Origin: Candidatus Poribacteria bacterium
GTDB taxonomy: Bacteria > Poribacteria > WGA-4E > UBA9662
Length of the DNA stretch: 48,933 nucleotides
Direction: 5' to 3'
Assembly: GCA_002709695.1 (NCBI GenBank)
Contig: PAQF01000021.1
Location: 20,582 to 69,514, forward strand
The notes under the pieces: generated by a model
Seen by the model: only the letters and a program-made list of their open reading frames with translations
Told to the model about the DNA's origin: nothing
The model's database searches: none
In this document: positions 2,836 through 48,807 of the stretch, piece by piece
Layout of the letters: every line of letters begins with the position of its first letter
How positions within the stretch are numbered: position 1 is the first letter of the stretch
Position numbers and translations under genes: made by a program

Positions 2836-3615
2836 ATGTCAAAAACTATTTTATATTCCACTTTTGTGTTAATGCTAAGCGTAATCTACCTTGCTACAGT
2901 AGAAGCTGCAGATAAAACATTAATTCTTCACTTGCCTTTTGACGAAGGGTCAGGAAAAAAGGCTGCAGACAAATCCTCATACGGCCATCACGCCGAACTG
3001 ATAGCAAACTACAAATGGGTACCTGGTAAATTTGGAAAAGCTGTTGAAATCGCAAATAAGCAGAGCGCTGATAACATTAAAACTAAGGAAGCAAATACAC
3101 TTAAAATAGAAGGTGAAATTACCAAGATGGCCTGGGTAAAAGTTACCAAATGGACAGGAAATCTGATGACCGTTATCGGCAAAAACAACCATAATGGCGG
3201 TGAACATTCCTCTTACGGCTTTGGCCTAACAGGACAAGGAGCAGGAATTCAGGCCTTTTTTGGTACTGGTAAAAGCCGGCCGACCCTGAATAAAGCAGTG
3301 AAACTCGAAGCCGGCAAATGGATGCACGTCGCAGCCAGCTATGATGGCGTTGCGATGAAAGGTTACATTGACGGCAAACTAGCTGCTGAACAAAAGGAAA
3401 AATTCAGTTTCAAAGGTATCAACGATGCCCCTGTCCGAATTGGGTGCGCGAAAGATCGAGCAAGGTATCATTTCCATGGAGCAATCGATGAGGTAGTCAT
3501 CTATAGTCGCGCACTAAACGAGAAGGAAATTCAGGGAGTTATGAAAGGCTCACTCTTAGCACCAGTCACTCCAAAAGAAAAACTATCATTGACATGGGGC
3601 AAAATCAAAAACTAA
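2836..3615 (+). CDS. secreted LamG/concanavalin A-like lectin domain protein
   Basis: A 259-residue exported protein. Residues 1-25 form a signal peptide (Lys4, hydrophobic core, cleavage near VEA-A). Residues about 28-240 make up one LamG-like jelly-roll domain: the N-terminal LHLPFDEGSGKKAADKSSYG pattern, a central GKWMHVAASYDG-type strand with a following YIDGKL, and the closing GAIDEVVIYSRALNEKEI motif are all characteristic. Such domains bind glycans or other extracellular ligands; no catalytic module is attached. An AGGAGAG site sits 9 bases before the ATG. Downstream a 12-bp stem-loop may end the transcript. It is a single gene with its own promoter; its role is probably surface or matrix binding, which is inference. 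Confidence 0.87.
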   Translation: MSKTILYSTFVLMLSVIYLATVEAADKTLILHLPFDEGSGKKAADKSSYGHHAELIANYKWVPGKFGKAVEIANKQSADNIKTKEANTLKIEGEITKMAWVKVTKWTGNLMTVIGKNNHNGGEHSSYGFGLTGQGAGIQAFFGTGKSRPTLNKAVKLEAGKWMHVAASYDGVAMKGYIDGKLAAEQKEKFSFKGINDAPVRIGCAKDRARYHFHGAIDEVVIYSRALNEKEIQGVMKGSLLAPVTPKEKLSLTWGKIKN

Positions 3616-12300: not shown

Positions 12301-13189
12301 TCTTGAAGCTTACGAAATAACAAATAACAGACGTTTTCTAAAACAAGCAGAATATTGGGCAAACACTGGATTATTGTTTATATACTCTTGGAGATTACCT
12401 GACCGACCCGGTATGTATGGAGCATCAATTCCAGCTTTTGGCACTAGTTTCCATACACACTCGTGGTTCGGAGTACCAGTCCAGTGGTGTGGTCTAGTGT
12501 ATGCGTACTACCTTCAGCGACTGGCAGGAAAAAGCCAGCAAAAAGACTGGAAAAAAATAGCAGAATCCATTACTATTAGTGCCGCATATCAGCAATGGAC
12601 AGAGGGAGACCTAAAAGGAACCTACCCCGACGGCTTTTACAATTATTGCACTGAGGGAAAAGGACCACACCTCAACCCAGAAAACATCATGGCTAACCTC
12701 TACGCCCTCCGTGATTTGGATCCAGACATTTCAACTGCAATAATTCGGCGGAAAAGCCGACGCGTCCACATCAGTAGCGGTGCAAAAATCGAAAATAAGC
12801 AATGGCGACAATCAGGTCAACTAAACTATAGACTACGTTACGTCCAACATGAAACAAGTTATACCATAATCATTGGACTAGGAGCAGCCCCCAGTACAGT
12901 GAAAGCCGTGAATGAGGAATTGCCACTTGCTGATAGTTTAGATCCTTCGTCTTGCTGGCTCTACAGGCCAAACAAAGAAATGTTACTTGTTAAATACACT
13001 CATCCGAAAAATTCAGTTGATTTTGAAATCACTCCTGCAGGTACAAATAAGCCTGAGAATAATGCTGAGAATAATGAAGACCAACCTGATGAGGCCACAC
13101 AAACTCCAACCGAAGATGAAAAAGGTGAAATTACTGAGCTTCCTGTAGATTTCATTGCAGATACCTCCAGAAAATCTGAGGACGAGTGA
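9332..13189 (+). CDS. large multidomain protein with probable alpha/alpha-toroid domain
   Basis: A 1285-residue protein with GGAGG 7 bases before the ATG. Residues 1-16 are short and hydrophobic and may be a weak signal. Residues about 20-130 are low-complexity, rich in Glu, Gln, Ser and Thr, with an imperfect repeat (HMEQED / HTEQED). A beta-rich segment around 130-295 recalls carbohydrate-binding NPCBM-type modules. About 375-470 looks like a CARDB/Ig-like domain (FEVQCRVKNVGLAP). Residues 790-1140 are helical with aromatic turns (GLVSEAG, GSWCFHP, NTGDTVLG and HTHSWFG), as in six-hairpin glycosidase or lyase folds. The last 45 residues are acidic. I cannot name a family with certainty; a polysaccharide lyase or unsaturated glucuronyl hydrolase-like enzyme acting at the surface is the best guess. 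Confidence 0.6.
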   Translation: MLTMIQMLLATSFVQTKGPETKDTETDQADPTESEETMHQKTSNENKANKDGKKTQEPEVDVSEQQEISSETKEIKDSDLSQSSDVNQSIHMEQEDAKTDQDSEPASNEQAGIENSSNSQSNHTEQEDKVECNFGIVNRFYNFVENFNQANILNVLDASASQEDFAGGVAKPAIFEHPSSVGDSRIEYIVELPTIEDNEKLIFSSFIGLRDGIDFDYPATKPDGVHFAIEIDSEKVCHSSILTCEWQENNVDLTRFAGGKRKIVLITNAGESNDANYDWALWGEPQLIKLTPKDLLIARNEKEPRLRRGIASLTVTDVSIDQKTIIETLETAFVFEQDLLATNAIKQIQQQILHEKTLVHISFFVDQPILEINILGTQQALITANKHFEVQCRVKNVGLAPITRANEASLGINKLKLKRGRSVQHIRNLSSGEEIILKWEIRKFSRPSLAKMGISLRYKIPGEKINFADEKSIIIHTDIPEISQKVIERVHTFNHDEHLVVGNGNFRAVFVKGTQGFEYILFYVTQDKEYQQVAISNVISEISYCDEAGTSQSVKITPKVYSMSGNSNGESILTFSDQIKDNDGATWSYEFRFSTTENTSRLKTSYKISSNQSRNLTVFRGPNLYIGESTFGRKKTFAIFPGLEFLEGEEASSSIRDAAPPINNRLVPHPYKITMPLMAVEHKKALIGLIWDPLQKWDGEHQTLSATFASPNWHDNQNNHLMGLFIPTPMEWLNENNLQASKPYNLLPNQDLNIKAEILLDGKASGLKAVDHWLEAYSIPEPPEQPRSDQEILELSRHSFIHSVWDEESKKSRHCVGWPPLNAPGFATLLWYDYLVTSSDEAKQRALEIAQNTIEESGIGGLVSEAGCHILKWEFPFYFGHVELAIDQIKKVIDNLIEAQGKDGSWCFHPTTDRTKTLGNTGDTVLGTEAISAFKLLKFARITNDHDSLQAGLKALKFMAKFMVPRGAQGWECPIHQPDILAAAYGVAAYLEAYEITNNRRFLKQAEYWANTGLLFIYSWRLPDRPGMYGASIPAFGTSFHTHSWFGVPVQWCGLVYAYYLQRLAGKSQQKDWKKIAESITISAAYQQWTEGDLKGTYPDGFYNYCTEGKGPHLNPENIMANLYALRDLDPDISTAIIRRKSRRVHISSGAKIENKQWRQSGQLNYRLRYVQHETSYTIIIGLGAAPSTVKAVNEELPLADSLDPSSCWLYRPNKEMLLVKYTHPKNSVDFEITPAGTNKPENNAENNEDQPDEATQTPTEDEKGEITELPVDFIADTSRKSEDE

Positions 13190-27498: not shown

Positions 27499-29418
27499 AT
27501 GATCAGTAAAAACAGAGATCAACATTTGGGACTGACTTGGCGAACCCTATTCATTGTTGCATTAACTGCTCCCATCAACTGTTATTTTCTCATCCAGATG
27601 GAGTTGGTACGTTACACCTTTCCAACTTGGGTTGTTCCACTGTCGAATGTCATCTTTATCCTAGCTATAACCATTATGGTTAATCTTATTTTGAGCTGGA
27701 TATGGCCGAGTTCGGTGTTGCGTGCCGATGAGCTCATCGTGCTCTACGTAATGTTGAGCTTGACTACAACCATGGCAGGTTGTGACGTGTTACAAGCTGT
27801 ATTGTCGGTCTTGGGACACGGATTTTGGTTCGCTACTGAAGAAAATGAATGGAAAGAACTTTTCTGGGATTATCTGCCTCAATGGTTGACCATTTCTGAC
27901 AAACACGTTTTACATGGTTACTATACTGGTGATTCCAATTTCTATCTACCACATCATTTGAAAGTGTGGATTCCTGTATTACTTGGCTGGCTCTTCTTAT
28001 TCCTCACATTAGCTCTAATCTTCCTTTGTTTAAATACGATTCTTCGCCAACAATGGGCAGATCGGGAGCGACTGACATTTCCTATTATTCAACTGCCAAT
28101 AGAAATGACTAATTCCACATCTGTTTTCTTCAGAAATAAACGGATGTGGTTAGGGATAGGCATCGCCAGTAGCATAAGCCTACTCAACGGACTAAGTGTC
28201 ATATACCCATCACTACCGTCACTTCCAATCACGCGACGCTCCTTTTCCTTTATCGAATTACCTTTGAGTTTCTATGGCAGCATAACTATTGCTTTTTATC
28301 CTTTCGCCATTGGAATTATGTTTCTGATGCCTATCGATGTACTATTTTCTACGGCACTTTTCTATTTTCTGTATCGAAATGAAGTCGCTTTAGCTGAAAC
28401 TATAGGATGGCGAGGATTGCCTAAATTCCCCTATCTCGACCAACAAACATTTGGTGCTTTCATCGGCTTATGTATTTTCTTTGTCTGGATTGGTAAACAC
28501 CACTTTAGACAAGTTCTATCAAATGCCCTAGGCCAACCAGTAGCAATTGATGACACGGATCAGCCAATATCTTACCGAATGGCTTTCTGGGGGCTTTTTG
28601 GAGGCCTATTTCTATTTGCTTTTGCTTTGTATAAAGCAGGAATGACATTCGAAATAGCTATTATCTTTGCACTCCTTTTTTTAATCACTCCAATTATTAC
28701 TACCCGCATCCGTGCTGAGTCAGGTATCTTTGTACATGCTTACCACTGGCTAGCACCACGATACGCACTGGAAACAATCCTAGGTACTCGACGACTTGGT
28801 CCCCAAAACCTAACCGTTTTATCCGTCTGTTTTTTCAATAGAGACTATCGACCACAACAAATGCCACATCAATTGGAGGCTTTTAAAATTGCCGAAACAA
28901 CTGGTATCAGTCAGAAGAGAATGATGTGGGCAATTCTAATTTCCACAGCTATCGGCATTATGGTTGCCTTTTGGGTTCAACTTCATATGTACTACCAGAA
29001 AGGTGCCAACTCTGGATACTTTGGACCTTGGGCGCTCGGATATGGTCGGGAATACTTTAGGCGATTAACTAATTGGATTACTTATCCAACCAACACCGAT
29101 TGGATGAGTGTCTTATTTATAGGAATAGGTTTTTCTATCATGATGGCGTTGACATACTTACGCGTCAAATTTTTCTGGTTACCGCTGCACCCACTAGGCT
29201 ATGTAATGGCAAGTAATCAGGAAATGTCAGACCTATGGGCACCAATTCTTATTTGTTTGACGATGAAGTGGACAATCCTGAAACATGGAGGAATAAGAAG
29301 CTACAGGCAGGCAGTACCATTCTTTTTAGGACTTGTGTTAGGAGACTATTTGATGGGTATTATTTGGAGTCTTTTAAGTGTTCTACTGAATACGGAAATG
29401 TACCAATTTTACCCTTAG
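27499..29418 (+). CDS. polytopic membrane protein, DUF6785/DUF6784-like
   Basis: A 639-residue integral membrane protein with about 12-14 hydrophobic segments spread over the whole length. Conserved-looking loops include WPSSVLRADELIVLYV, RQQWADRERLTFPIIQLP and RIRAESGIFVHAYHW, which I associate with the DUF6785/DUF6784 proteins of planctomycetes and poribacteria; these show distant likeness to oligopeptide-type transporters. No ribosome binding site stronger than CGGGA is seen. It is divergent from the sugar-type dehydrogenase operon, which suggests a transporter for its substrate, but this is inference. The substrate is unknown. Confidence 0.75.
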   Translation: MISKNRDQHLGLTWRTLFIVALTAPINCYFLIQMELVRYTFPTWVVPLSNVIFILAITIMVNLILSWIWPSSVLRADELIVLYVMLSLTTTMAGCDVLQAVLSVLGHGFWFATEENEWKELFWDYLPQWLTISDKHVLHGYYTGDSNFYLPHHLKVWIPVLLGWLFLFLTLALIFLCLNTILRQQWADRERLTFPIIQLPIEMTNSTSVFFRNKRMWLGIGIASSISLLNGLSVIYPSLPSLPITRRSFSFIELPLSFYGSITIAFYPFAIGIMFLMPIDVLFSTALFYFLYRNEVALAETIGWRGLPKFPYLDQQTFGAFIGLCIFFVWIGKHHFRQVLSNALGQPVAIDDTDQPISYRMAFWGLFGGLFLFAFALYKAGMTFEIAIIFALLFLITPIITTRIRAESGIFVHAYHWLAPRYALETILGTRRLGPQNLTVLSVCFFNRDYRPQQMPHQLEAFKIAETTGISQKRMMWAILISTAIGIMVAFWVQLHMYYQKGANSGYFGPWALGYGREYFRRLTNWITYPTNTDWMSVLFIGIGFSIMMALTYLRVKFFWLPLHPLGYVMASNQEMSDLWAPILICLTMKWTILKHGGIRSYRQAVPFFLGLVLGDYLMGIIWSLLSVLLNTEMYQFYP

Positions 29419-33258: not shown

Positions 33259-35412
33259 ATGAAATTTAAGCCTTTAGGTTCAATCTTATACATTGGACTT
33301 ATGTTGATCTGCTTGCAAGCAACTGCAAACACTCCGCTTTTAATCATCACTGGGTTGGTCACTAACGAAGACAGTTCAGGAGCGAATCAGGTCAAAGTAT
33401 ATGTCGTAAATAAAACTAGAACAGATGCGGCTACACCCAAATGGACACATACGAAAACAGATAAAAACGGCAGATACCAAGTTCTACTAATGCAAATGGA
33501 AACCCAGCTAAAGGTGGCTGGGCGCGGTGATGAATTCCTCGTGGCAATCATCGATAAAGATAATGTGGTAGTTGCACGTCAGAGCCATATTATAACTGAG
33601 AAAGAAATAAATTCAAAAAATGCCATAATTGACGTTAGAATTCCTACTCCACCAGTAGCAGTACCGCAAAAAATTATTATTAATGAGGACACACCAAAAT
33701 TAATTACCTTAACTGCGGAAAACCACGAGGGAAAGCAAATAACTTGCCAAATAATCCGACCTCCCAAAAATGGCAAACTTTCGCCGGTTGGACAAACTGA
33801 TTTTGTCTATACTCCCAATCTAAACTATCACGGACCAGATTCCTTTGTGTTTCAGGCTAGTGACGGCATTGCAGATAGTAAGGCAGTGAAAGTTACTTTA
33901 GCAATTCATGCTATTAACGATGCGCCAGTTGCCATAGACCAATCAGTTACAACAACTGAGGAAACTCCTGTAATCATCCAGTTATCAGCTACTGATTCAG
34001 AAGGTGGATCTTTTGATTATTCGATTGTCTCTCCGCCTGAAAATGGTCATTTATCAGGAGAAATGCCGAACCCAACATATATTCCAAAGTCCAATTTTGA
34101 GGGTACAGACACCTTTACTTTTAAAGCCAATGATGGCATCCACGACAGCCAAGTCGCCACCGTGATTATAATCGTTGATTCGCTCAACGATAGCCCAATT
34201 GCTATCGATCAAGTAATCAACATAAATGGGAATAAACCGAAAAAGATAACCTTATTTGCGCATGATTATGACCATGATGAACTAACATACCACATAGTTA
34301 GACAACCAAACTATGGCAGAATATTTGCTGTTGATAATGCCAATGTAAATTACATAACTAATTCAGGTTTTGATGGCACAGACACCTTTACTTTTAGAGT
34401 TAATGACGGAACTGACTTTAGTCAAACTGCAACTGTTACCTTGAAGGTAGGAAAACAAATTCCGTTGGTTACTTTCTGGGTAAATGTGCCACAAAACACA
34501 CGGACGGTGATGATCGGTGCAACAACTAGTTTTGACTTGTTAATTCGGGGAGAAAAAGGGTTTCAAGAAACTGTTGACCTTTCCATTGATTTGTCCACAA
34601 TGCCAATTGCCACCCAAATAGCACCCGAGGGAAAAAGTATCAATCCCAGAAGCTCATCCCAAGAAGTAACCCTAACTCTAAAAACAACAAACTCAACACC
34701 AGTGGGACAATACAAAATCAGTGTCGTCTTAGAAAGTGCCAGTGATCTTAAAATGGTTGAGCTAATACTATTTGTGGAAGAGAAAGTCAAATTGTTAGGA
34801 GATGCCAACGGAGATAACCAAGTTGATATTCTCGACCTAGTGCTAGTCGCTAGCTACTTTGGTTTGGTAGGCGAAAACTTACCTCAAGATACGAATCAGG
34901 ATGGACGAATAGACATCCTCGACCTAGTAATGATAGCCACTGAATTTGGCCAGATCGCTACCGCACCAAAACTATTGCACAGAGAACTGTATTTTACTAC
35001 TCAACAGAAACGAAGCATCCAATCAGCTATAGAGGCATTAGAACGTACGCTGATCAGATCTGATGCAGAAGCTGTAGTATTCAATGCCTTGAAAGCCATT
35101 CTACTTCAAAGATCGGCAATTGAAACACAATTGCTCCCTAATTATCCTAATCCTTTCAACCCTGAAACGTGGATACCTTTCGAATTAGCTGAGGATACCG
35201 AGGTCTCAGTAAGAATCTTCGATACTTCGGGAAAAATTGTCAGACAAATTAGTCTTGGATATCTTAATGCTGGTTCGTATGTATCAAGAGAACGAGCCGT
35301 TTATTGGAACGGCCGCTCGGACGCTGGTGAGTATACATCAAGCGGGATTTACTTTTATTGCATTTCAGCCGAAAGCTTTTCCGCCATGAGAAAAATGGTT
35401 ATAATGAAATAA
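33259..35412 (+). CDS. secreted multidomain protein with Ig-like repeats, dockerin and C-terminal sorting-type module
   Basis: A 717-residue exported protein. Signal peptide 1-24. Residues about 26-120 resemble a carboxypeptidase-regulatory-like domain (TDKNGRYQVLL). Three tandem repeats of about 95 residues at 130-405 share GTDTFTFKANDG-type ends, as in cadherin/Ig-like tandem modules. A beta domain covers 410-510. A type I dockerin at about 511-565 has two calcium loops (GDANGDNQVDILDLV and DTNQDGRIDILDLV). From 627 to the end lies a FlgD-Ig-like/T9SS-type module beginning NYPNPFNPETWIPF. It is probably displayed or secreted, with the dockerin binding a cohesin. The next gene encodes two cohesins. 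The Shine-Dalgarno is weak. Confidence 0.9.
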   Translation: MKFKPLGSILYIGLMLICLQATANTPLLIITGLVTNEDSSGANQVKVYVVNKTRTDAATPKWTHTKTDKNGRYQVLLMQMETQLKVAGRGDEFLVAIIDKDNVVVARQSHIITEKEINSKNAIIDVRIPTPPVAVPQKIIINEDTPKLITLTAENHEGKQITCQIIRPPKNGKLSPVGQTDFVYTPNLNYHGPDSFVFQASDGIADSKAVKVTLAIHAINDAPVAIDQSVTTTEETPVIIQLSATDSEGGSFDYSIVSPPENGHLSGEMPNPTYIPKSNFEGTDTFTFKANDGIHDSQVATVIIIVDSLNDSPIAIDQVININGNKPKKITLFAHDYDHDELTYHIVRQPNYGRIFAVDNANVNYITNSGFDGTDTFTFRVNDGTDFSQTATVTLKVGKQIPLVTFWVNVPQNTRTVMIGATTSFDLLIRGEKGFQETVDLSIDLSTMPIATQIAPEGKSINPRSSSQEVTLTLKTTNSTPVGQYKISVVLESASDLKMVELILFVEEKVKLLGDANGDNQVDILDLVLVASYFGLVGENLPQDTNQDGRIDILDLVMIATEFGQIATAPKLLHRELYFTTQQKRSIQSAIEALERTLIRSDAEAVVFNALKAILLQRSAIETQLLPNYPNPFNPETWIPFELAEDTEVSVRIFDTSGKIVRQISLGYLNAGSYVSRERAVYWNGRSDAGEYTSSGIYFYCISAESFSAMRKMVIMK

Positions 35413-35484
35413 GTCGATCTCTGAACCATCAACAAATTGGTTTTTCGAAAGAATCTATGAGCTAATAGTCTAAGGGAGAGAACT

Positions 35485-37077
35485 GTGCAAAAATTATCGT
35501 GTAGCTTCATCGCACTTCTTATTCTAACGGTTACGTTAACAGCATCTGCAGTCACAACTGTTTCGATCACCCCAGCCACAATAGAATTACCAGAGATCGG
35601 CCAGCAATTGGAAGTTCAAGTCAAAATCTCTGACGGTAGAGGTATCGCAGGATACCAATTAACATTAATTTATGATCAAGCAATACTAGAACATATCGAC
35701 ATTAAAGTTGGCGACTACTTACCTCCAGAACCATTTTTGGTTCCACCAGTGTCTTCTCCTGGTTCAGTAATGGTAGGAGCAGTCGCCATCAGTGGTGTAG
35801 CCAAAAAGACAGATGGCATTTTGGCTTTGGCAACTTTCAAAGTATTAATTAAGAAGGATTCAACCATTCAATTATCGGAGGTTAGACTGTCCAACCGAGA
35901 AGCCAAGGCTATTCCTGCTACCATCAAAAATGGGAATGTGTTGAGGGACAGAGGTTTAGCCACTCCTTTAGGCTTAGAAACTAAAGATATCACCTTGGAT
36001 AAAGGTAATTTAGGTAATACTGTTTTGGAACCGTTGGACAAACCAGCGAATTTCGACAATGCTGCAAAAGTCTCAATTGAACCGGCTAAAATCGGACTGC
36101 CCGAAATTGGTCAACAGGTCCAAGTTCGGATCAAAATCACTAATGGGAGAAATGTAGCTGGATATCAATTGAAACTGGCTTACGACAAAACTGTTCTCGA
36201 ATATATTAACATCAAAAACGGTGACTATCTACCAGAAGATTTCGCCAAGGTGTTCGATGTAGAACCAGTAATTTCGTCAGGATCAGTACTCTATGGCGCA
36301 GCAGCTATTGGTAATACCTCAAAAATTGCGGATGGAACACTAGCTACAGTAACTTTCAGGGTTCTTGCCAGAAAGGATTCAGCCATTAGATTATCAGATG
36401 TTCTTTTGTCTGACGGTAACGCTCAAGAAATTGAAATCACTACCCAAGGTGGGCGAGTTACGGAAGAAGTTGCGAACAGAAGACCAGTGATTACCGAACG
36501 AACTGATGGAGGGAAATCACTACACGTCAATACTATTGTCACCACCAATGGATTCCCAGTCACTGCCTTAACATCTATTTACCAAAACCAAAATGGAATA
36601 ATCGTCAAAGCAGGAATGTTGATCGAGTACCAAGTCAAATTTTCCGAGTTGAGCGTTTTAAAATCTGGTGGTGTTTACGTTCACACTGCAGATGGTATTG
36701 TTCTCCAACCATCTGCTAAAGGACAAGGTATGCGTCATCAAAAAGCACCCATCAGCAGATGGTCACACCAGCAAATTGAACTAGCGCCAATCGTCAATAA
36801 GAGAATTGTGGCTATTACTGTAGGCAGCAAAGTAGAATCAGCACCAAAAGGCCTGTTTAGCATGTTAGTGGATAATATTCAACTAACTGATGGAAACACG
36901 ATTATAACACCCATCTGGTTGTCGGTCGACCGTTCTACTGAAAAAATAAACAACAACATCTATGGTAAACTAGTGGGTGTAGACCGGCTCAATTTAGGAA
37001 TAGCTAATGATGAAGTGGCTGTTTACCCTCAAGGCAAAGTGTTAACTAGTTGGGGACGGATTAAATCCGATCCGTAA
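35485..37077 (+). CDS. secreted protein with two cohesin domains
   Basis: A 530-residue exported protein: signal peptide 1-23, two cohesin-type beta sandwiches at about 24-150 and 192-320, and an unrecognised C-terminal domain from 340. The cohesins share the strands ELPEIGQQ / GLPEIGQQ, GYQLTLIYD / GYQLKLAYD and the loop GDYLP, showing internal duplication. Cohesins bind dockerins with calcium in cellulosomes and in other surface assemblies. GTG start with GGGAGAG 4 bases upstream. It follows the dockerin protein by 72 bases in the same direction and probably shares its transcript, so the two are candidate partners. The C-terminal part may anchor to the surface or bind another ligand. Confidence 0.85.
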   Translation: MQKLSCSFIALLILTVTLTASAVTTVSITPATIELPEIGQQLEVQVKISDGRGIAGYQLTLIYDQAILEHIDIKVGDYLPPEPFLVPPVSSPGSVMVGAVAISGVAKKTDGILALATFKVLIKKDSTIQLSEVRLSNREAKAIPATIKNGNVLRDRGLATPLGLETKDITLDKGNLGNTVLEPLDKPANFDNAAKVSIEPAKIGLPEIGQQVQVRIKITNGRNVAGYQLKLAYDKTVLEYINIKNGDYLPEDFAKVFDVEPVISSGSVLYGAAAIGNTSKIADGTLATVTFRVLARKDSAIRLSDVLLSDGNAQEIEITTQGGRVTEEVANRRPVITERTDGGKSLHVNTIVTTNGFPVTALTSIYQNQNGIIVKAGMLIEYQVKFSELSVLKSGGVYVHTADGIVLQPSAKGQGMRHQKAPISRWSHQQIELAPIVNKRIVAITVGSKVESAPKGLFSMLVDNIQLTDGNTIITPIWLSVDRSTEKINNNIYGKLVGVDRLNLGIANDEVAVYPQGKVLTSWGRIKSDP

Positions 37078-39523: not shown

Positions 39524-39589
39524 AAACCGTTTAACCAGTCTAAGGTAAATATTATTTCACGTTTTTAGATTTTTATGGAGGAACACCAA

Positions 39590-40921
39590 ATGATGGGTGC
39601 AAGTTTTCAATTAGAAAAAAGGCTTCGTCAGTTTTTCAAAATAGCTAGTCTCTCATTTTTAATGCTAAGTATCATTAGTATTCTCCCATTATCTGTTCAC
39701 GCAGATGGTCATCAAGTCAAAATTGGCGTCTTACACTCATTGAGTGGAACAATGGCAATTTCTGAAACCTCCCTCAGGGATGTAGTATTAATGGCTGTAG
39801 AAGAGATCAATGACTCTGGCGGTGTGCTAGGAAAAGAAATAGTACCCGTAGTGGTTGACCCAGCTTCTGATTGGCCACTATTTGCCGATAAAGCGAAACA
39901 ATTGCTAACTCAAGACAAAGTTGCTGTTACTTTTGGATGTTGGACTTCCGTTAGCCGAAAATCCTGTTTGCCAGTATTCGAAGAGTACAATGGTCTACTT
40001 TTCTATCCTGTCCAATATGAAGGTGAGGAACAATCGCTAAACGTCTTTTATACCGCCGCATCTCCGAATCAACAGTTAGTACCTGCAGCTGAATACATGA
40101 TGGAAGAATATGAGATGGAAAAATTCTATCTTCTCGGCACAGATTATGTTTTCCCCCGAACTGCCAACAAAGTGCTGAAAGCTTTCCTGAAATCTAAAGG
40201 GGTACCAGACGAAAATGTCGAAGAAGTCTACACACCATTCCATCATCAAGACTATCAAACTATTGTTTCCCAGATCAAAGAATTTGCCGCTGAAGGTAAC
40301 GCCTGTGTTTTGTCTACCATTAATGGAGACAGCAATGTTCCCTTCTATAAAGAATTTGCTAATCAAGGACTAACCTCAGAAGATTGTCCTATTATGGCCT
40401 TTTCCGTAGCAGAAGATGAATTACGTGCTATGGATGTTCCCCCTCTGGTTGGTCATTTAGCTTGCTGGAACTATTACCAAAGTATTGATACACCAGCAAA
40501 CAACAACTTTGTCAAAGATTTCAAAGATTTTTGTGAAAAAACAAGTTTGCCTGGTGGTGCCGATCGTGTCACTGACGATCCAATTGAAGCGGCATACTTC
40601 GGTGTCTATGTTTGGAAAGCAGCGGTTGAGAAGGCAGGTTCTTTTGAAGTAGATAAGGTTCGTGAAGCTGTTTATGGTCTTGAGTTTGACGCCCCAGGCG
40701 GCAAGAAAAAGATGCATAAAAATAATCAACATACACTAAAGCCTGTTTATGTTGGTGAAATTCTAGCAAATGGCCAATTTGATATTGTTTGGCAGTCCGA
40801 AGGATTAGTTAGCCCCGATTCGTATAGTAGCTACTTGCATCCTGATGGAGACTATCCAGCACCTACACCTAACGACAAATTCAAAGAACTGTCAGCCAAA
40901 TCAGATCGCTGGAAAAAATAG
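39590..40921 (+). CDS. urtA: urea ABC transporter substrate-binding protein
   Basis: Periplasmic urea receptor of the branched-chain-amino-acid-type family, 443 residues. GGAGG overlaps the first ATG (39575), so the ATG at 39590, 8 bases after it, is the better start. A signal peptide runs to about VHADG. The mature part begins [17 protein letters not shown], and [17 protein letters not shown] and [11 protein letters not shown] are UrtA hallmarks. The end [16 protein letters not shown] is normal and the length complete. First gene after the sigma-54 promoter and separated from urtB by a strong hairpin, which would give more receptor than permease. Confidence 0.96.
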
Positions 40922-40980
40922 GTTGTTGACAACGGTTGTTTATCTTTGATAACCTCTGATATTAGAGAGGCCATGATATA

Positions 40981-41014
40981 AATGCCTGTTCCTCATCTTG
41001 AGGACGGGCATTTT
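40981..41014 (+). terminator. strong hairpin between urtA and urtB
   Basis: The arms AATGCC-TG-TTCCTCA and TGAGGA-CG-GGCATT pair almost completely (one bulge, one G-U) with a 3-base loop, followed by TTTT. It acts as an intrinsic terminator or attenuator after urtA, with partial read-through to urtB. Confidence 0.75.
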
Positions 41015-41064
41015 CCGTTTAAGCTTTTCCTGAGTTTAAAAGTTAGGATCTTCGATACTTCCCT

Positions 41065-42792
41065 ATGAGCATGTTGACCGACTATTTTGATTTTATGATA
41101 TCTAGATATCGTTTTTTTCTCTGGCTAACTTTCACTGCTTTGCTTTCTTTACCCTTATATTCTGAGACAAACGAAGCCGAAATTAGAAACCTTCTTATTC
41201 AATTTGGTGACAAGAAATCTTCAGTGAGAAAGTTGGCTTTAATCGGGTTGGCGAAATACGAAGACGAACGCCTTATATCTGTATTAGATGCATATAAACT
41301 GCGTCAACTCTTCATTTGGAACGATGAACGGGTTGTTCTGTGCAAAGAAGTGCAAGAAAACATTGCGTACTTACAAGACCCATTAACAGGTAAAAAAATA
41401 CAAAACCCCTCAAATAACCAACAACATCAAGTTCCAATAAATAATTTGAAATCTATTCGTCCTGCTAGAAAAGAACGAAACTTAGCCGAAAACATCAAAT
41501 CTTTATTGAAACTCTCCTCATCAAACTTTAAAATCCGTTTTTCAGGCTCCAAAAAGTGTGGCGAACCCAGAACAATTAAAGGGTTAGGTCAATTAAATGA
41601 CTTAGCTTTTAGAAGATTGGGAAAATTAGTAAAGGAAGACACCGATAAAAAAATCCGGCGTATCGCCCAAGAAAGTGCGTTATTGATTCAAATCCATCAA
41701 ACTCCTTTGAAAACTGATTTAGACAAACATCTTGTCATAGTTAAACAATTGGGTTTAACAAAAAGTATGAGGGTACAAAAACACCTAGAAAAGACGCTGA
41801 AAAACATTGACAAGGATGGAGATACTAATCCGCAAGTCAAAAAAACGTATGGGGAAGCAATTAGAAAAATCGACACATACCAAAGCCGGATTTTATTTTT
41901 GTCTAACTTGTTTTTTGGAATATCTCTCGGTTCAGTATTGATCTTAATGGCTTTAGGGTTAGCAATCACCTTCGGACTTATGGGCGTCATTAATATGGCT
42001 CACGGCGAATTAATGATGATAGGTGCTTATACAACCTTTGAAATGCAGAAACTATTCAAACATACAATAGAAACCCCGAACAACTTATATTATGTCTTTG
42101 CACTTCCTGCATCCTTTCTAACTGCAGCATTCATTGGTTTCTTAATTGAGATTCTGGTTGTACGTCATCTATATAAACGTCCACTAGAATCCTTGCTTGC
42201 TACTTGGGGAATTGGCTTGATACTAATTCAGTCAGTCCGTTTGAGATACGGTGATAATATCGGTGTCAACGCACCAACTTATTTGCGAGGTGGCATTGAG
42301 TTGATCCAAGACTTTATCCTACCTTATAATCGCTGTTTTATCATTGCCTTATGCACTTCAAGCGTGTTTTCCATCTATTACCTCATGCGTTATACAGAAC
42401 TCGGTTTAAAAATGCGAGCAACTATGCAAAACCGAGATATGGCAAGCAGCTTAGGAGTAAATACTAATTTTGTTGACAGGTACACATTTGCCTTTGGTTC
42501 TGGAATCGCCGGCATTGCTGGTTATGCTTGGACACTTATTGGCGGAGTGACTCCTGATATGGGTCAAACTAACTTCATCGTTGACTCCTTCCTAGTAGTT
42601 GTTACTGGCGGCGTCGGAGAAATCATTGGTGTTATTTGCTCCGGACTAGGTATCGGCATCCTGACAAAGGCAATTGAACCAACTATAGGCACTATTTGGG
42701 CCAAGATTTTTTTGTTGGTGGGAGTGGTAGTTTTTATTCAATTTAAACCATCAGGTCTCTTCGCTCCAAAAGGAAGGATGGCAGATGATTAA
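41065..42792 (+). CDS. urtB: urea ABC transporter permease UrtB
   Basis: A 575-residue permease of the branched-chain-type ABC transporter. The C-terminal 290 residues hold about eight membrane segments with LGLAITFGLMGVINMAHGE and IGVNAPTYLRG, typical UrtB. The first 275 residues are a signal-like segment followed by a helical HEAT-like periplasmic extension (residues 35-70 and 190-270), seen in many UrtB proteins. With UrtC it forms the urea channel, powered by UrtD and UrtE. The ATG at 41065 lacks a good Shine-Dalgarno. It overlaps urtC by 8 bases, so they are translated together. Confidence 0.94.
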   Translation: MSMLTDYFDFMISRYRFFLWLTFTALLSLPLYSETNEAEIRNLLIQFGDKKSSVRKLALIGLAKYEDERLISVLDAYKLRQLFIWNDERVVLCKEVQENIAYLQDPLTGKKIQNPSNNQQHQVPINNLKSIRPARKERNLAENIKSLLKLSSSNFKIRFSGSKKCGEPRTIKGLGQLNDLAFRRLGKLVKEDTDKKIRRIAQESALLIQIHQTPLKTDLDKHLVIVKQLGLTKSMRVQKHLEKTLKNIDKDGDTNPQVKKTYGEAIRKIDTYQSRILFLSNLFFGISLGSVLILMALGLAITFGLMGVINMAHGELMMIGAYTTFEMQKLFKHTIETPNNLYYVFALPASFLTAAFIGFLIEILVVRHLYKRPLESLLATWGIGLILIQSVRLRYGDNIGVNAPTYLRGGIELIQDFILPYNRCFIIALCTSSVFSIYYLMRYTELGLKMRATMQNRDMASSLGVNTNFVDRYTFAFGSGIAGIAGYAWTLIGGVTPDMGQTNFIVDSFLVVVTGGVGEIIGVICSGLGIGILTKAIEPTIGTIWAKIFLLVGVVVFIQFKPSGLFAPKGRMADD

Positions 42793-43963
42793 CAACGGAT
42801 CCGGATTTGGTCCAAACCAGAAAACTGATAAGCTAAAGCGCAATTTCATTGCACTTCTGTGGTTAACACTGGGTTTGGTTATTATCCCTCTACTTTATAT
42901 CACTGGTGCGATCTCAATTGAAACAGTCAACAAATTGGGAAGATACATGACCTATGCACTGGTAGCTGTGGGGCTAGATCTAATTTGGGGTTATGCGGGA
43001 ATTTTGGGGTTATGCCAAGCCCTGTTCTTCTGCCTTGGCGGATATGCTATGGGAATGTACCTAGCACATCATGGTGGGCCTGAAGGCATTATCGATAAAA
43101 CAGGTTGGAAACTTCCTGCTTGTTTATACGTAGTATATCCTTACAAAGTAGGCGAAGTCCCACAAGATGCGCTAGTCCCTTGGTTTTGGAAACCATTTTG
43201 GTCATTACCAATCACTGTTGTTCTAGGACTTTTGATTCCAGGGGTTGTTGCATTTATCATTGGCTACTTTGGATTTCGCAGTCGTGTCCGCGGCGTTTAT
43301 TTTGCCATTTTAACTCAAGCTATTACTGTCGCTGCACAGAACTTCTTTAGCATGAACAACATGAAATTTTGTGGCACCAATGGGCTAACCCGGTTCGAGA
43401 AAATTGCCGGTTTTGAGTTGGCTAGTAGCAAAGTCCAGTTTAGTTTGTACATACTAACTGTTGTGATGCTGTTTCTAGTATATGTTGTATATCGATATAT
43501 CGTCAACTCCCGCTTGGGTAGAATTCTAATTGCCGTTCGAGATGACGAGAATACACTGCGTTTTTCCGGTTACAAACCCTATATATATAAACTATTCGCA
43601 TTTGTTTTGGCTGCAGTGACCGCAGGCTTGGCAGGTATGCTGTATGTTCCACAAATGAAGATCATAACGCCTCATAACCTAGGAGCGGAAAGATCCATCT
43701 TAATCGTAATTTATGTCGCTGTTGGCGGTCGCAGCACACTTTCCGGTGCCATAGTAGGTGCACTAGGTGTTAGCTTAATGTACGATAACCTGACTTCTAC
43801 TATTCCATGGGCTTGGCCTTATGTACTTGGTTTTTTATTCATTGCAGTTGTCTTGGGATATCCAGATGGTTTAGTCAAGTTGCCACAAAAATTGTTCAAC
43901 AAATTCAAACAACCAACTGCTGAAGACACATTTGAGGTTTCGTCTACCCCCTCAAGCGAGTAG
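42785..43963 (+). CDS. urtC: urea ABC transporter permease UrtC
   Basis: A 392-residue integral membrane subunit, normal length. About ten hydrophobic segments. The conserved block GYAGILGLCQALFFCLGGYAMG near residues 58-80 contains the LGxCQxxFFxxGxYxMxMY-type pattern of UrtC, and NSRLGRILIAVRDDENTLRFSGY is the cytoplasmic loop that contacts the ATPases. AGGA precedes the ATG, which lies inside the end of urtB. The second half of the permease with UrtB. Confidence 0.94.
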   Translation: MINNGSGFGPNQKTDKLKRNFIALLWLTLGLVIIPLLYITGAISIETVNKLGRYMTYALVAVGLDLIWGYAGILGLCQALFFCLGGYAMGMYLAHHGGPEGIIDKTGWKLPACLYVVYPYKVGEVPQDALVPWFWKPFWSLPITVVLGLLIPGVVAFIIGYFGFRSRVRGVYFAILTQAITVAAQNFFSMNNMKFCGTNGLTRFEKIAGFELASSKVQFSLYILTVVMLFLVYVVYRYIVNSRLGRILIAVRDDENTLRFSGYKPYIYKLFAFVLAAVTAGLAGMLYVPQMKIITPHNLGAERSILIVIYVAVGGRSTLSGAIVGALGVSLMYDNLTSTIPWAWPYVLGFLFIAVVLGYPDGLVKLPQKLFNKFKQPTAEDTFEVSSTPSSE

Positions 43964-43983
43964 ACTTCAAAAGGACAAAAAAT

Positions 43984-44790
43984 ATGGTACAAACGCCGCA
44001 AACTCGGCTTGACGAATATTTACTGGATAGCCCAACTAATAGTAGATTTTCAGAGGAAAAATTTATTCTTTTCCTAGAAGGGATAACTGCTGTATTCGAT
44101 GGGTTCAAAGCACTAGATGTTGAAGCTTTAGGCATAGAACACAATGAATTGCGTGTAGTGATCGGACCAAATGGTGCGGGAAAAACTACCATGTGTGATA
44201 TTGTTAGCGGGAAAACGCGACCGACTACTGGAACAGTGCATTTTGAAGGTCAGAACATCACGGGTATACCTGAAACTGAGATCGCCCTGATGGGTGTCGG
44301 GCGAAAATTCCAAACCCCAACAGTGTTCGACAGTTTAACCACATATCAAAATATGGAACTCGCATTACCCGGACATCAAAAATTATTTCCTAACCTCTAT
44401 AGTCAAGTTTCTACCGAGGAAGACGACCAAATACTTGAAATTCTCGCACGAGTTGGACTAACAGACGAATTAGACACCGAAGCTAGATATCTTAGTCATG
44501 GCCAGCGACAATGGTTAGCAATTAGCACCTTAATTCTATCTAGCCCAAAGTTGTTACTGGTTGATGAACCTGCTGCGGGTCTAACCGATGCAGAAACGGA
44601 ACTGACAGCGGAGTTGCTTCTAGAACTAAAGGGCGACCACACACTGATCATTATTGAACACGATATGGATTTTGTGCGCCGTCTTGATTCTTTTGTCACC
44701 ATGTTACATGAAGGACATATTATGGCTGAAGGAACACTGGAAGAACTTCAACAAAACGAAGAAGTAATTGAAGCCTATTTGGGAAGATAA
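43984..44790 (+). CDS. urtD: urea ABC transporter ATP-binding protein UrtD
   Basis: A 268-residue ATPase. Walker A GPNGAGKTT (about residues 58-66), signature LSHGQRQWL, which is the UrtD-specific form, and Walker B LLLVDEPAAGL are present, as are the switch His in IIEHDMDFV and an N-terminal extension of about 25 residues. AAAGGA lies before the ATG, 20 bases after urtC. Its stop overlaps the start of urtE (TAATG). Hydrolyses ATP in the cytoplasm to drive urea import. Confidence 0.95.
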   Translation: MVQTPQTRLDEYLLDSPTNSRFSEEKFILFLEGITAVFDGFKALDVEALGIEHNELRVVIGPNGAGKTTMCDIVSGKTRPTTGTVHFEGQNITGIPETEIALMGVGRKFQTPTVFDSLTTYQNMELALPGHQKLFPNLYSQVSTEEDDQILEILARVGLTDELDTEARYLSHGQRQWLAISTLILSSPKLLLVDEPAAGLTDAETELTAELLLELKGDHTLIIIEHDMDFVRRLDSFVTMLHEGHIMAEGTLEELQQNEEVIEAYLGR

Positions 44791-45482
44791 TGTTAATAGT
44801 CAACAACCTTTCGTTCTCCTACGGTGAAGTTCAAGCTCTTCGAAACATCAATATTGATGTGCCTAAAGAACAAATAGTAAGCATTATGGGAAGAAATGGG
44901 GTTGGGAAAACCACTTTGATGAAGAATATTGTGGGTTTGCTCAAACCATCGATAGGAACAATAACGCTCGAGAATCAAGGGATTGAGAAACTTCCGGCAC
45001 ATCAGCGAATACGAGTAGGTATTGGTTACGTTCCTCAAGGAAGAATGATTTTTCCCAAACTGACCGTCAACGAGAACCTAAGAATTGGCCTATTCGGTCG
45101 ACAGAATGGCAAGGTTATCCCAGATGAGATCCTCGATCTGTTCCCAATTTTACAAGAGATGCACAACCGGATGGGTGGTGACCTCTCAGGAGGTCAGCAA
45201 CAACAACTAGCTATTGCCCGTGCTTTGGTTACCGATCCGAAAATCCTGATTTTAGACGAACCCACAGAAGGAATTCAACCTAACATTATTCAGCAAATCG
45301 GACAGATATTAACAGAATTAGTTAAACAACGGAACATGACAATCTTAATCGTTGAACAATACCTGGATTTTGTGAGAGAATTCTGTCAGCATTTCTATGT
45401 AATGAATCGTGGTGAAATTGTAGCGAATGCTGAAACGGAAGACTTGACGCAGGAAATCGTTAAAGAGTATCTTAGTGTTTGA
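44790..45482 (+). CDS. urtE: urea ABC transporter ATP-binding protein UrtE
   Basis: A 230-residue ATPase, the second of the pair. Walker A GRNGVGKTT, signature LSGGQQQQLAIARAL, Walker B ILILDEPTEGIQPNI and the switch region VEQYLDF follow the UrtE pattern. Its start overlaps the stop of urtD, and its stop overlaps the first possible start of ureD, so the transporter and urease genes form one unit. Confidence 0.95.
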   Translation: MLIVNNLSFSYGEVQALRNINIDVPKEQIVSIMGRNGVGKTTLMKNIVGLLKPSIGTITLENQGIEKLPAHQRIRVGIGYVPQGRMIFPKLTVNENLRIGLFGRQNGKVIPDEILDLFPILQEMHNRMGGDLSGGQQQQLAIARALVTDPKILILDEPTEGIQPNIIQQIGQILTELVKQRNMTILIVEQYLDFVREFCQHFYVMNRGEIVANAETEDLTQEIVKEYLSV

Positions 45483-45514
45483 TTCAGCATCATTCATTCA
45501 TCTGTTGTTACGAT

Positions 45515-46384
45515 ATGCTCAACTTAAAATCTTCAGCCGGACGACATGGCGAACTTAGGCTCGCACTCTCAAATCGGAATAATCAAACAATTGTAACGGA
45601 AAGTTATAGCCGTGTCCCTCTTCAAATAATGAAACCCATTTATGATCGTAAAAGTGGTGCGGTCTGTTTCTACCTACTTAGTCCAACTGGAGGCATTGTA
45701 CAAGGGGATGACTACCGGATTCAGATTAATTTATCGGAGAGTGCTCATGCGGTGCTAACAACACAAGCTGCAACTAAAGTCTATGCCATGCCGAAAGGCT
45801 CTGCTAGACAGCAAGTTGATTTTTATGTCGGCAAAAATTCAGTGTTTGAGTATCTACCAGACCCAACAATTCTGTTTCAGGAAGCTGATTTTGAACAACA
45901 AGTTAATCTTCATGTCAATCAAAAAGGTGGCAAAATCGTCTTCCAAGAAATTATCATGCCAGGCAGGTTAGCACGTGGAGAAGTCATGGCTTTCAAACGC
46001 TATCGTTCACAGTTACAAGGATATGACGAAAACGGTATTATATTACACGATTCCTTTTGTCTTGAACCAGAACAGCATTTCCCAAGGAGCCTAATGAACA
46101 CCATTGGTGTACTGGATAATTATCCCTGTTGGGGAACATGGTATTTTCTTGGTGATTGCAGTCTAATTTCCCCCAACTGGCAACACATGCATGATGTTTC
46201 TAATCCTCTGTTGAATCAAGAGGGTGAATCAACAGGCGGGATGACCTTATTACATCGAAATGGAATGGCAATCAGAATGTTAGCGCGCAACGTGCAAACA
46301 ATTCAGTCGGCTTTTCGAAATATTTGGGATTGGATCAAAACAGAAATTCTGGCACTCAAAAAGATTGATTTACGAAAGTATTGA
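45515..46384 (+). CDS. ureD: urease accessory protein UreD
   Basis: A urease maturation chaperone, part of the UreDFG complex that delivers nickel to the apo-urease. Family blocks: RHGELRLALSNR at the N-terminus, FYLLSPTGGIVQGDDYRI, HAVLTTQAATKVYAM, EYLPDPTILFQ and FQEIIMPGRLARGE. About 290 residues, as usual. I prefer ATG 45515; a TTG at 45479, overlapping the end of urtE, would add 12 residues. Neither has a strong Shine-Dalgarno, so translation may be coupled to urtE. Confidence 0.92.
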   Translation: MLNLKSSAGRHGELRLALSNRNNQTIVTESYSRVPLQIMKPIYDRKSGAVCFYLLSPTGGIVQGDDYRIQINLSESAHAVLTTQAATKVYAMPKGSARQQVDFYVGKNSVFEYLPDPTILFQEADFEQQVNLHVNQKGGKIVFQEIIMPGRLARGEVMAFKRYRSQLQGYDENGIILHDSFCLEPEQHFPRSLMNTIGVLDNYPCWGTWYFLGDCSLISPNWQHMHDVSNPLLNQEGESTGGMTLLHRNGMAIRMLARNVQTIQSAFRNIWDWIKTEILALKKIDLRKY

Positions 46385-46414
46385 TAGATACCACTAATAT
46401 GAAGGGAGAACATT

Positions 46415-46717
46415 ATGAACTTAACACCACGTGAGCAAGAAAAGCTGTTGATTTATGTCGCAGCCCAACTAGCCAGAGATCGAAAAGCACGTGGACTCAA
46501 GTTGAATTATCCGGAAGCTATTGCCTTGATTACAGCCGAAGTCTTAGAGGGAATCCGTGAAGGTAAGTCGGTCGCCGAACTAATGAGTTATGGAACCACA
46601 ATCTTGACAATGGAAGATGTCATGGAAGGTGTGCCAAACATGATCGACGAAATCCAAGTAGAAGGCACATTCCCGGACGGGACAAAATTAGTTACTGTTC
46701 ACAATCCAATTCGCTAG
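46415..46717 (+). CDS. ureA: urease subunit gamma
   Basis: A 100-residue structural subunit with the typical opening [21 protein letters not shown] shortened here to its start, the central [14 protein letters not shown] and the end [20 protein letters not shown] precedes the ATG by 8 bases. It assembles with UreB and UreC into the (alpha-beta-gamma) trimer. It is separate from UreB, as in most bacteria other than Helicobacter. Confidence 0.97.
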
Positions 46718-46735
46718 TCAAATAAAGGAAAAACT

Positions 46736-47086
46736 ATGATTCCAGGTGAATATATTCTTGCTGAAAACCCAATTAATGCCAACACCAATCGCCAAACAAT
46801 TGAATTAAACGTCATTAATGAAGGAGACAGACCTATTCAAGTTGGATCGCATTTCCACTTTTTTGAAGTTAATCGTGCGCTTAAATTTGAGCGTGATAAA
46901 GCTTTTGGTATGCGGCTCAACATCCCCTCGGGCGTAGCAGTTCGATTTGAACCAGGCGATAACAAGACAGTAACCTTAACCACGTTCGTTGGCACACGCA
47001 CCGTCTTCGGGCTAAACAACTTGACTAATGGATCACTTGATGAACCAGAAGTAAAATCCGCTGCCATTCAAAAACAAGGAGAGTAA
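46736..47086 (+). CDS. ureB: urease subunit beta
   Basis: A 116-residue structural subunit. It begins [13 protein letters not shown] and has [14 protein letters not shown] and the [16 protein letters not shown] block, all canonical. AAAGGAA lies 5 bases before the ATG, 18 bases after ureA. Forms the urease core with UreA and UreC. Confidence 0.97.
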
Positions 47087-47094
47087 AGTATAAG

Positions 47095-48807
47095 ATGAAA
47101 ATCACACGGGAAACTTATGCGGATATTTATGGTCCAACAGTGGGTGACAAAGTTCGGTTAGCCGATACGGAGCTTTTTATCGAGGTCGAGAAAGACTATA
47201 CTGCTTATGGTGATGAATCAAAATTTGGGGGTGGTAAGACATTACGTGATGGGATGGGACAATCGCCAAATGCAACACGGTCCGACGGTACATTAGATTT
47301 AGTAATTACCAATGCCCTGATCTTGGATCATTGGGGAATTATCAAAGCCGATATTGGTATTCGTGATGGTAGGATTATCGGCATAGGAAAATCAGGTAAC
47401 CCGAATCTGATGGAAGGTGTCGGTGCAGAAATGATCGTGGGCGCAGGAACAGAGGTTATTGCTGGAGAAGGTATGATTGTTACCGCTGGCGGAATCGATG
47501 CACACATTCATTTCATCTGCCCCCAACAAATAAATGAAGCTTTAGCATCTGGAATTACAACAATGATAGGCGGTGGTACAGGTCCTGCTACCGGTACGAA
47601 TGCAACTACCTGTACACCTGGTGTTTGGAATATTGGTCGAATGCTAGAAACCGTTGAAGGATTTCCAATCAACTTTGGATTTCTAGGGAAAGGAAACAGC
47701 TCATTTCCAGACCCACTACGTGAGCAGGTTGAAGCTGGTGCTATTGGGTTAAAATTGCATGAAGACTGGGGAACAACTCCGGCAGCCATCGATAATTGCC
47801 TTTCAGTAGCAGAAGAATATGATATTCAGGTCGCCATACACACCGATACACTTAACGAATCAGGTTTTGTAGAAGATTCAATTGCCGCATTTAAAGGACG
47901 AACCATCCACACTTACCACACAGAAGGTGCTGGAGGAGGACACGCTCCTGACATCATTAAAGTATGTGGCGAAAATAACGTGTTACCTTCATCAACAAAC
48001 CCTACACGTCCTTTCACTATCAATACGATTGATGAACATCTGGACATGTTAATGGTCTGTCATCATCTTGATGCATCGATTCCCGAAGACCTTGCTTTTG
48101 CTGAATCCCGAATCCGCCCGGAAACAATCGCAGCGGAGGATATTCTGCATGACCTAGGAGCGTTTAGTATCATGGCATCTGATTCTCAAGCCATGGGACG
48201 TGTGGGCGAGGTTGTTATCCGCACATGGCAGACAGCACACAAAATGAGGATTCAACGTGGGCAGTTGCCGGAAGAAACAGGGGTAAACGACAATTTCCGA
48301 GCTAAACGATATGTAGCCAAATATACGATTAATCCGGCAATTGCGCATGGTATATCTGATCAAGTTGGTTCAGTAGAAGTTGGAAAGATGGCGGATTTGG
48401 TTATCTGGCACCCCGCTTTTTTTGGCATTAAGCCACAATTGATTGTAAAAGGTGGTTTTATCGTACAAGCTGCCATGGGAGATGCCAATGCTTCAATCCC
48501 AACTCCACAACCAATTCTACAAAGACCAATGTTTGGAGCTTTTGGTCGTGTACCCAATACAACTTCTTGTACATTTGTTTCACAAGCTAGTCTTGATTGC
48601 GAAATTGGTAATCAATTAAAATTACAAAAACTTCTGCTCCCAGTCAAAAGTTGCCGGGCCCTCTCGAAAGCAGACATGATACACAACACCTATTTGCCTG
48701 TACTTGAAGTGAATCCTGAAACTTATGAGGTTTTGGCAGATGGGAACCTGTTGACATGCGAACCTGCCGAATCGCTTCCCATGACACAACGTTATTTCCT
48801 ATTTTAA
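47095..48807 (+). CDS. ureC: urease subunit alpha (catalytic)
   Basis: A 570-residue nickel amidohydrolase that splits urea to ammonia and carbamate. All active-site residues are present with the usual spacing: His137 and His139 (DAHIHF), carbamylated Lys220 (GLKLHED), His222, His249 (AIHTDT), His275 (HTYH), flap Cys322-His323 (VCHHLD) and Asp363 (MASDSQAMG). The protein is full length and ends in RYFLF, as expected. It starts 8 bases after the ureB stop. AAGGAGA lies in the preceding gene's end. The enzyme appears fully competent. Confidence 0.98.

What the first reader, a model, noticed from the sequence alone, without database searches (positions are those of the whole stretch)
33259..37077. 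Adjacent dockerin and double-cohesin secreted proteins
One gene encodes Ig-like repeats, a two-loop type I dockerin and a C-terminal sorting-type module; the next encodes two cohesins. Cohesin-dockerin pairs build cellulosomes, but there is no cellulase here. The pair may assemble an adhesive or matrix structure on the surface of a symbiont. The double cohesin could bind two dockerin proteins from elsewhere in the genome.
Basis: partly seen in the sequence, partly recalled or inferred. Interest (0 to 1): 0.62.

Follow-up and report, generated by a model that had tools for sequence, protein, structure and literature searches.

The report
Poribacterial cohesin–dockerin surface-assembly gene pair
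An uncultured bacterium of the phylum Poribacteria carries, side by side, a secreted plug-bearing (dockerin) protein and a secreted two-socket (cohesin) protein, part of a genome-wide set that probably clips surface proteins together without cellulases, and the socket protein ends in a short tail that marks dozens of exported proteins in every genome of this phylum and looks like an undescribed sorting signal.

Summary
Window 33259-35412 encodes a signal-peptide-like start, three Ig-like repeats, a complete two-loop type I dockerin and an 89-residue T9SS-type tail. Window 35485-37077 encodes two cohesins, a beta-sandwich domain and a short C-terminal tail. Predicted cohesin folds match solved cohesins, including the non-cellulosomal one of Archaeoglobus. 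The genome, from Candidatus Poribacteria, has 9 Pfam cohesin matches in 8 proteins and 15 dockerin proteins; none scanned carries a recognised glycoside hydrolase, and 14 carry the T9SS tail. The gene order dockerin-then-cohesin recurs in 4 of 10 independent lineages with different partner domains. Best reading: a non-cellulosomal surface-assembly module, a new variant of a known kind. Binding was not tested.

In 30/30 own-genome loci examined it ends the protein, across about 13 families with export-type N-termini. No Pfam or NCBIfam tail model covers it. It is probably a new sorting or anchoring signal. SprA homologues in 82/83 Poribacteria genomes offer the T9SS translocon that a 2014 study did not find.

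The parts
33259..35412 (+). Gene 1: secreted Ig-repeat / dockerin / T9SS-tail protein, 717 aa
   Evidence: ORF; Pfam; 72% identical syntenic orthologue in a congener
33646..34458 (+). Three Big_9 / cadherin-like tandem repeats (approximate limits)
   Evidence: Pfam Big_9 E 1.6e-42, 3 stretches; NCBIfam tand_rpt_95
34795..34938 (+). Type I dockerin, residues 513-560; calcium loops at 34801-34836 and 34888-34923
   Evidence: Pfam Dockerin_1; loop check; helices 20-28 and 49-62 of the model
35143..35409 (+). C-terminal FlgD-like / T9SS type A sorting domain beginning NYPNPFNPETW
   Evidence: Pfam FlgD_ig, Por_Secre_tail; TIGR04183 31 bits, cut-off 23
35472..35479 (+). AAGGGAGA, ribosome-binding-like site for gene 2
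   Evidence: sequence
35485..37077 (+). Gene 2: scaffoldin-like double-cohesin protein, 530 aa
   Evidence: ORF; 75% identical orthologue in a congener
35593..35937 (+). Cohesin 1
   Evidence: PF00963 38.6 bits; model; Foldseek
36106..36438 (+). Cohesin 2
   Evidence: PF00963 56.6 bits; model; Foldseek
36487..36984 (+). C-terminal beta-sandwich (CBM-like) domain, no Pfam family
   Evidence: conserved across 14 homologues; model pTM 0.77; weak matches to GH85 endoglycosidases and InhA2
37021..37074 (+). W tail: VAVYPQGKVLTSWGRIKSDP (from the second V to the end)
   Evidence: 33 motif hits in own genome; 85/85 Poribacteria versus 2/204 other genomes; low pLDDT, predicted flexible
2836..3615 (+). 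Second, variant W-tail protein in the window: LamG-like, ends KLSLTWGKIKN

Best explanation
The two genes encode the socket and one plug of a non-cellulosomal, calcium-dependent surface-assembly system. Gene 1 is a secreted spacer protein of Ig-like repeats; its dockerin is the plug, and its 89-residue FlgD-like tail takes it across the outer membrane by a divergent T9SS (SprA/PorV-like). Gene 2 is a minimal scaffoldin: two cohesins that take up two dockerin proteins, a beta-sandwich that may bind glycan, and a short W tail that sorts or anchors it. Because the genome's dockerins share similar, mostly hydrophobic residues at loop positions 10-11, the sockets probably accept several of the other dockerin proteins (metallopeptidase-like, FGE-like, WD40, LRR/cyclophilin, WG-repeat). 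Shown here: modules, predicted folds, recurrence, tails, SprA and PorV homologues. Inferred: binding, partner choice, calcium dependence, secretion route and surface location.
For: Modules and folds. Genome set: 9 Pfam cohesin matches in 8 proteins and 15 dockerin proteins over the cut-off; 14 of the 15 carry PNPFNP tails, of which the genome has 31. Gene order dockerin+tail -> cohesin on the same strand in window/L153, L157, L162 and L165, with different partner domains (Ig repeats, propeller-like, Ig plus cohesins, cohesin): 4 of 10 independent lineages, p about 2e-6 if 1% of neighbours were dockerin genes. In G008 a multi-cohesin gene (L092:9141-11210) is flanked by proteins with a T9SS-type tail, two of the three scanned also carrying both cohesin and dockerin. 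C77 (L103:7157-7966) is a cohesin protein with an IIGC lipobox-like start, a possible anchor. T9SS candidates: SprA homologue, 165.9 bits over the protein, present in 82/83 Poribacteria; at least eight PorV-family proteins over the cut-off.
Against: No interaction evidence: model pTM 0.37 and dockerin pLDDT about 75-80. The neighbour pairing is absent in 6 of 10 lineages. SprA scores stay below the family's curated cut-off except in one genome, and PorV-family proteins may have other roles. Several dockerin proteins also contain a cohesin, so cis pairing could compete.
Confidence: 0.68

Rival explanations
1. The two neighbours do not pair; each works with other partners, and many cohesin-dockerin contacts are within one protein (cis) or chain identical proteins head to tail. 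Six proteins of this genome hold a dockerin next to a cohesin or cohesin-like domain.
For: C24, C25 (two), C41, C39 and C86 proteins carry both modules next to the tail (in C39 and C86 the cohesin is below the cut-off or read by eye); L162 and L165 partners also carry both; pairing absent in 6 of 10 lineages.
Against: Gene 1 has a dockerin but no cohesin, and gene 2 cohesins but no dockerin; adjacency recurs more than chance.
Confidence: 0.2
2. A true cellulosome-like degradative complex: the sockets hold hydrolases acting on host or detrital glycans and proteins, with the beta-sandwich as substrate binder.
For: Metallopeptidase-like (sequence) and FGE-like dockerin proteins; cohesin-CBM9-like protein C17; reported precedents, Ca. 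Stygibacter and the 'planctosome' (PMC8542988, PMC6461901).
Against: No dockerin protein scanned carries a Pfam-recognised glycoside hydrolase, and most carry repeat or adhesion domains.
Confidence: 0.1
3. Cohesin and dockerin folds kept only as generic beta-sandwich and calcium-loop stabilisers, without mutual binding.
For: No binding data; cohesin and dockerin modules occur widely outside cellulosomes (PMC9012536, citing Peer 2009).
Against: Both modules are found together in all 59 genomes of the order examined; recurrent adjacency; loops largely intact in both repeats of 13 dockerins.
Confidence: 0.05

Closest known systems
Non-cellulosomal cohesin and dockerin proteins of Archaeoglobus fulgidus and ANME archaea
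   Same: Cohesin and dockerin modules outside cellulose degradation; gene 2 cohesin resembles the solved A. fulgidus cohesin 2xdh (TM 0.79 over the target, 22% identity); ANME have scaffoldin-like multi-cohesin proteins (PMC9012536).
   Different: Here a bacterium with T9SS-type tails on dockerin proteins and W tails on scaffoldins.
Ca. Stygibacter (Cloacimonadota) complex, PMC8542988
   Same: Dockerin enzymes plus a cohesin scaffoldin with a T9SS-type C-terminal domain.
   Different: There a 3,755-residue scaffoldin with CBM2/CBM3, and chitinase and amylase-like partners; here small scaffoldins, with the T9SS-type tail on the dockerin proteins rather than on the scaffoldin.
'Planctosome' of freshwater Planctomycetes, PMC6461901
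   Same: Cohesin-dockerin set proposed without cellulose degradation.
   Different: Anchored there by a lamin-tail domain protein; different module order.
Clostridial cellulosome (ScaA cohesin dyad of Acetivibrio, PDB 3l8q)
   Same: Cohesin folds; two cohesins in tandem in one protein.
   Different: No glycoside hydrolase recognised among the dockerin proteins scanned; no SLH or X-dockerin anchor seen in the two proteins.
PEP-CTERM, GlyGly-CTERM and T9SS type A/B tails (for the W tail; from own knowledge)
   Same: Short conserved C-terminal segment shared by otherwise unrelated exported proteins, restricted to one lineage.
   Different: About 16 residues, no transmembrane helix; different sequence; no Pfam or NCBIfam tail model hit it in the proteins scanned.

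Membership tests
Cohesin (PF00963) | Profile match over the curated cut-off | tested here: met
   85.8 bits, cut-off 24.1, two stretches
Cohesin (PF00963) | Jelly-roll fold of solved cohesins | tested here: met
   AlphaFold2 and Foldseek: 3l8q E 7e-16, 2xdh TM 0.79 over the target
Type I dockerin (PF00404) | Two 12-residue calcium loops with D/N at 1,3,5,9,12 | tested here: met
   DANGDNQVDILD, DTNQDGRIDILD; 26.9 bits, cut-off 22.9
Cohesin-dockerin assembly system | Calcium-dependent binding of a cognate pair | not testable with these tools
   model pTM 0.37 gives no interface
Cellulosome | Dockerin-bearing glycoside hydrolases | tested here: not met
   no GH family over its cut-off among the dockerin proteins scanned; C41 and C65, over 3,300 aa, not scanned whole
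Scaffoldin | Several cohesins, no catalytic domain, with a substrate- or cell-binding part | tested here: inconclusive
   two cohesins plus beta-sandwich of unknown ligand plus W tail
T9SS type A cargo | TIGR04183 tail at the C-terminus | tested here: met
   31 bits, cut-off 23
T9SS | SprA translocon present | tested here: inconclusive
   homologue over four stretches, 165.9 bits versus cut-off 200; 82/83 genomes of the phylum, only one over the cut-off
T9SS | Energising motor (GldL/PorL, GldM/PorM) present | not tested
Known C-terminal sorting signals (for the W tail) | Match to a catalogued tail model | tested here: not met
   no Pfam or NCBIfam tail model in gene 2, C78, C17 or ten further tail proteins
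C-terminal sorting signal (as a kind of thing) | Strictly C-terminal, on exported proteins of unrelated families, confined to a lineage | tested here: met
   30/30 own-genome loci within 6 residues of the stop; 13 similarity groups; export-type N-termini 27/28 versus 39/132 controls; 85/85 versus 2/204 genomes

The most novel reading that the evidence does not exclude
The W tail (V-x4-K-[LV]-x-T-x-W-[GA]-x-[IL]-K, then up to 6 residues) is a previously undescribed, Poribacteria-wide C-terminal signal that sorts or anchors exported proteins by a dedicated machinery, alongside a divergent T9SS that handles the FlgD-like tails. Cohesin scaffoldins with the first signal then hold dockerin proteins with the second, so that two secretion classes meet at one surface structure.
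Probability: 0.5. Interest if true: 0.8.

Novelty: new variant of a known kind. Interest (0 to 1): 0.58.

Why it matters
Cohesin-dockerin clips are workhorses of synthetic biology, yet what they do outside cellulosomes is open; here all genomes of an order examined carry them, in the window's genome mostly on adhesion-like repeat proteins. For the T9SS-type tails, a single-cell study of Poribacteria reported the tails but no structural genes of the Por system (PMC3909097); the SprA homologues found here make that question testable. The W tail, if a sorting signal, would add a new export or anchoring route marking tens of proteins per genome in most of this phylum.

Tried and rejected
Genome-contig search with the single gene 2 sequence found nothing; the alignment query worked. 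The read-through model of dockerin and cohesins gave no usable interface. Two dockerin rows misaligned in A2 were dropped. Idea that the W tail is part of the beta-sandwich: rejected, it follows unrelated domains and is predicted flexible. Chance origin of the W tail: rejected, reversed-pattern control 0-1 per genome against 1-137. Symbiosis-specific role: not supported. The held library has no paper with both Poribacteria and dockerin, and the text searches turned up none on this tail; subscription papers are not covered.

Full report
OBSERVATION. Gene 1 (33259-35412, 717 aa) has Ig-like repeats, a type I dockerin and a C-terminal FlgD-like / Por_Secre_tail module, all over the curated Pfam cut-offs and TIGR04183 over its cut-off. 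Both dockerin loops carry all calcium-ligand positions. Gene 2 (35485-37077, 530 aa, GTG start) has two cohesins. It follows gene 1 by 72 bp, with a ribosome-binding-like site and no + strand terminator-like site in the gap. The model of the stretch from dockerin to the end of gene 2 (stops read as Gly) is confident within the cohesins and uninformative between domains (mean pLDDT 78.5, pTM 0.37). Foldseek finds the ScaA cohesin dyad 3l8q (E 7e-16) and the A. fulgidus non-cellulosomal cohesin 2xdh. The domain after cohesin 2 is a beta-sandwich with only weak matches, to GH85 endoglycosidases and InhA2; a glycan-binding role is a guess.

ORGANISM AND GENOME SET. Relatives in named genomes are all Candidatus Poribacteria. 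The window's genome has 9 Pfam cohesin matches in 8 proteins and 15 dockerin proteins over the cut-off. Their other parts are WD40, Ig and invasin repeats, WG repeats, LRR plus cyclophilin, FGE-like, and two proteins whose sequences look like metallopeptidases. No glycoside hydrolase family was recognised over its cut-off in those scanned; the very long C41 and C65 proteins were not scanned whole. The genome has 31 PNPFNP motifs, 14 of them on dockerin proteins. Six dockerin proteins also hold a cohesin or cohesin-like stretch. Three cohesin proteins have neither dockerin nor PNPFNP tail and end in the W tail: gene 2, C78 (one cohesin plus the same beta-sandwich) and C17 (cohesin plus a CBM9-like domain, just under its cut-off). 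A fourth, C77, starts with a lipobox-like IIGC. All 59 genomes of the order examined have both modules.

NEIGHBOURHOOD. The pair and its surroundings are syntenic in a congener (72% and 75% identity). The order dockerin+tail gene then cohesin gene, same strand, also occurs in L157, L162 and L165, whose dockerin proteins have different other domains. Counting lineages once, 4 of 10 have it; the six without are C78/L155, L156, L158/159, L161, L163 and L164. At a 1% background the chance is about 2e-6; that background rate is an assumption. In G008 a multi-cohesin gene sits among tail proteins with cohesins and dockerins.

MECHANISM. Best-supported: a plug-and-socket assembly at the cell surface. 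The dockerins scanned have a hydrophobic residue at loop position 10 and, in most, also at 11, in both repeats. From established work on clostridial type I dockerins these positions govern recognition, and internal symmetry allows two binding modes; hence the inference that partners are interchangeable. Binding itself is untested.

SECRETION. A 2014 single-cell study reported Por_Secre tails on many poribacterial proteins but no Por-system structural genes (PMC3909097). This genome encodes a 2166-residue SprA homologue (TIGR04189 E 8e-49, 165.9 bits, cut-off 200) and PorV-family proteins. SprA homologues occur in 82 of 83 genomes of the phylum, and one scores over the cut-off. A divergent T9SS is likely; motor components were not sought.

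THE W TAIL. Gene 2 ends ...VAVYPQGKVLTSWGRIKSDP. The DNA pattern AARNTNNYNACNNNNTGGGSNNNNNTNAAR gave 33 hits in the genome and none for the reversed control. All 30 loci examined have it within 6 residues of a stop. The proteins fall into 13 groups by similarity of their bodies, including LamG, F5/8-type and 3-keto-disaccharide hydrolase-like domains. 27 of 28 have an export-type hydrophobic start, against 39 of 132 control ORFs, by a simple hydropathy test. All 85 Poribacteria genomes have it, 1 to 137 copies; of 204 genomes from outside the phylum two have one hit each, lying 146 and 45 residues from the ORF end. Of hits sampled in other Poribacteria families nearly all are C-terminal; one, L181, has 23 residues after it. 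Pfam and NCBIfam name no tail in the proteins scanned. This pattern of facts is what sorting signals such as PEP-CTERM show; function remains inferred.

MEMBERSHIP AND NOVELTY. It is a cohesin-dockerin set, and on the evidence here not a cellulosome. Precedents exist in archaea, Cloacimonadota and Planctomycetes, so the pair is a new variant of a known kind: T9SS-type tails on the plugs, W tails on the sockets. The W tail is the part that may be new in kind.

Noticed in passing
37021-37074; 85 Poribacteria genomes: Short C-terminal W tail shared by unrelated exported proteins, confined to the phylum in the sample searched; candidate sorting signal.
   Followed up: partly
L121:3090-9590 (G000:C86): SprA-like 2166-residue protein: candidate T9SS translocon, phylum-wide.
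   Followed up: partly
2836-3615: LamG-like secreted protein ending KLSLTWGKIKN, a W-tail variant that the search pattern misses, so counts are lower bounds.
   Followed up: partly
L198:12039-18195 (G000:C3): Five W-tail genes in a row; a PorV-family gene lies about 8 kb upstream.
   Followed up: no
L103:7157-7966 (G000:C77): Cohesin protein with a lipobox-like IIGC signal: possible outer-membrane anchor for dockerin proteins.
   Followed up: no
L158:1707-6831, L159:1697-8517: Tandem FG-GAP repeat proteins with the FlgD-like tail, divergent from a cohesin gene.
   Followed up: no
27499-29418: DUF6785/DUF6784 membrane protein; relatives also lie near cohesin genes in L087, L091, L096.
   Followed up: no
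39575-48807: Urea-type ABC transporter cluster followed by urease alpha subunit.
   Followed up: no
9332-13189: 1285-residue ORF with no Pfam match.
   Followed up: no
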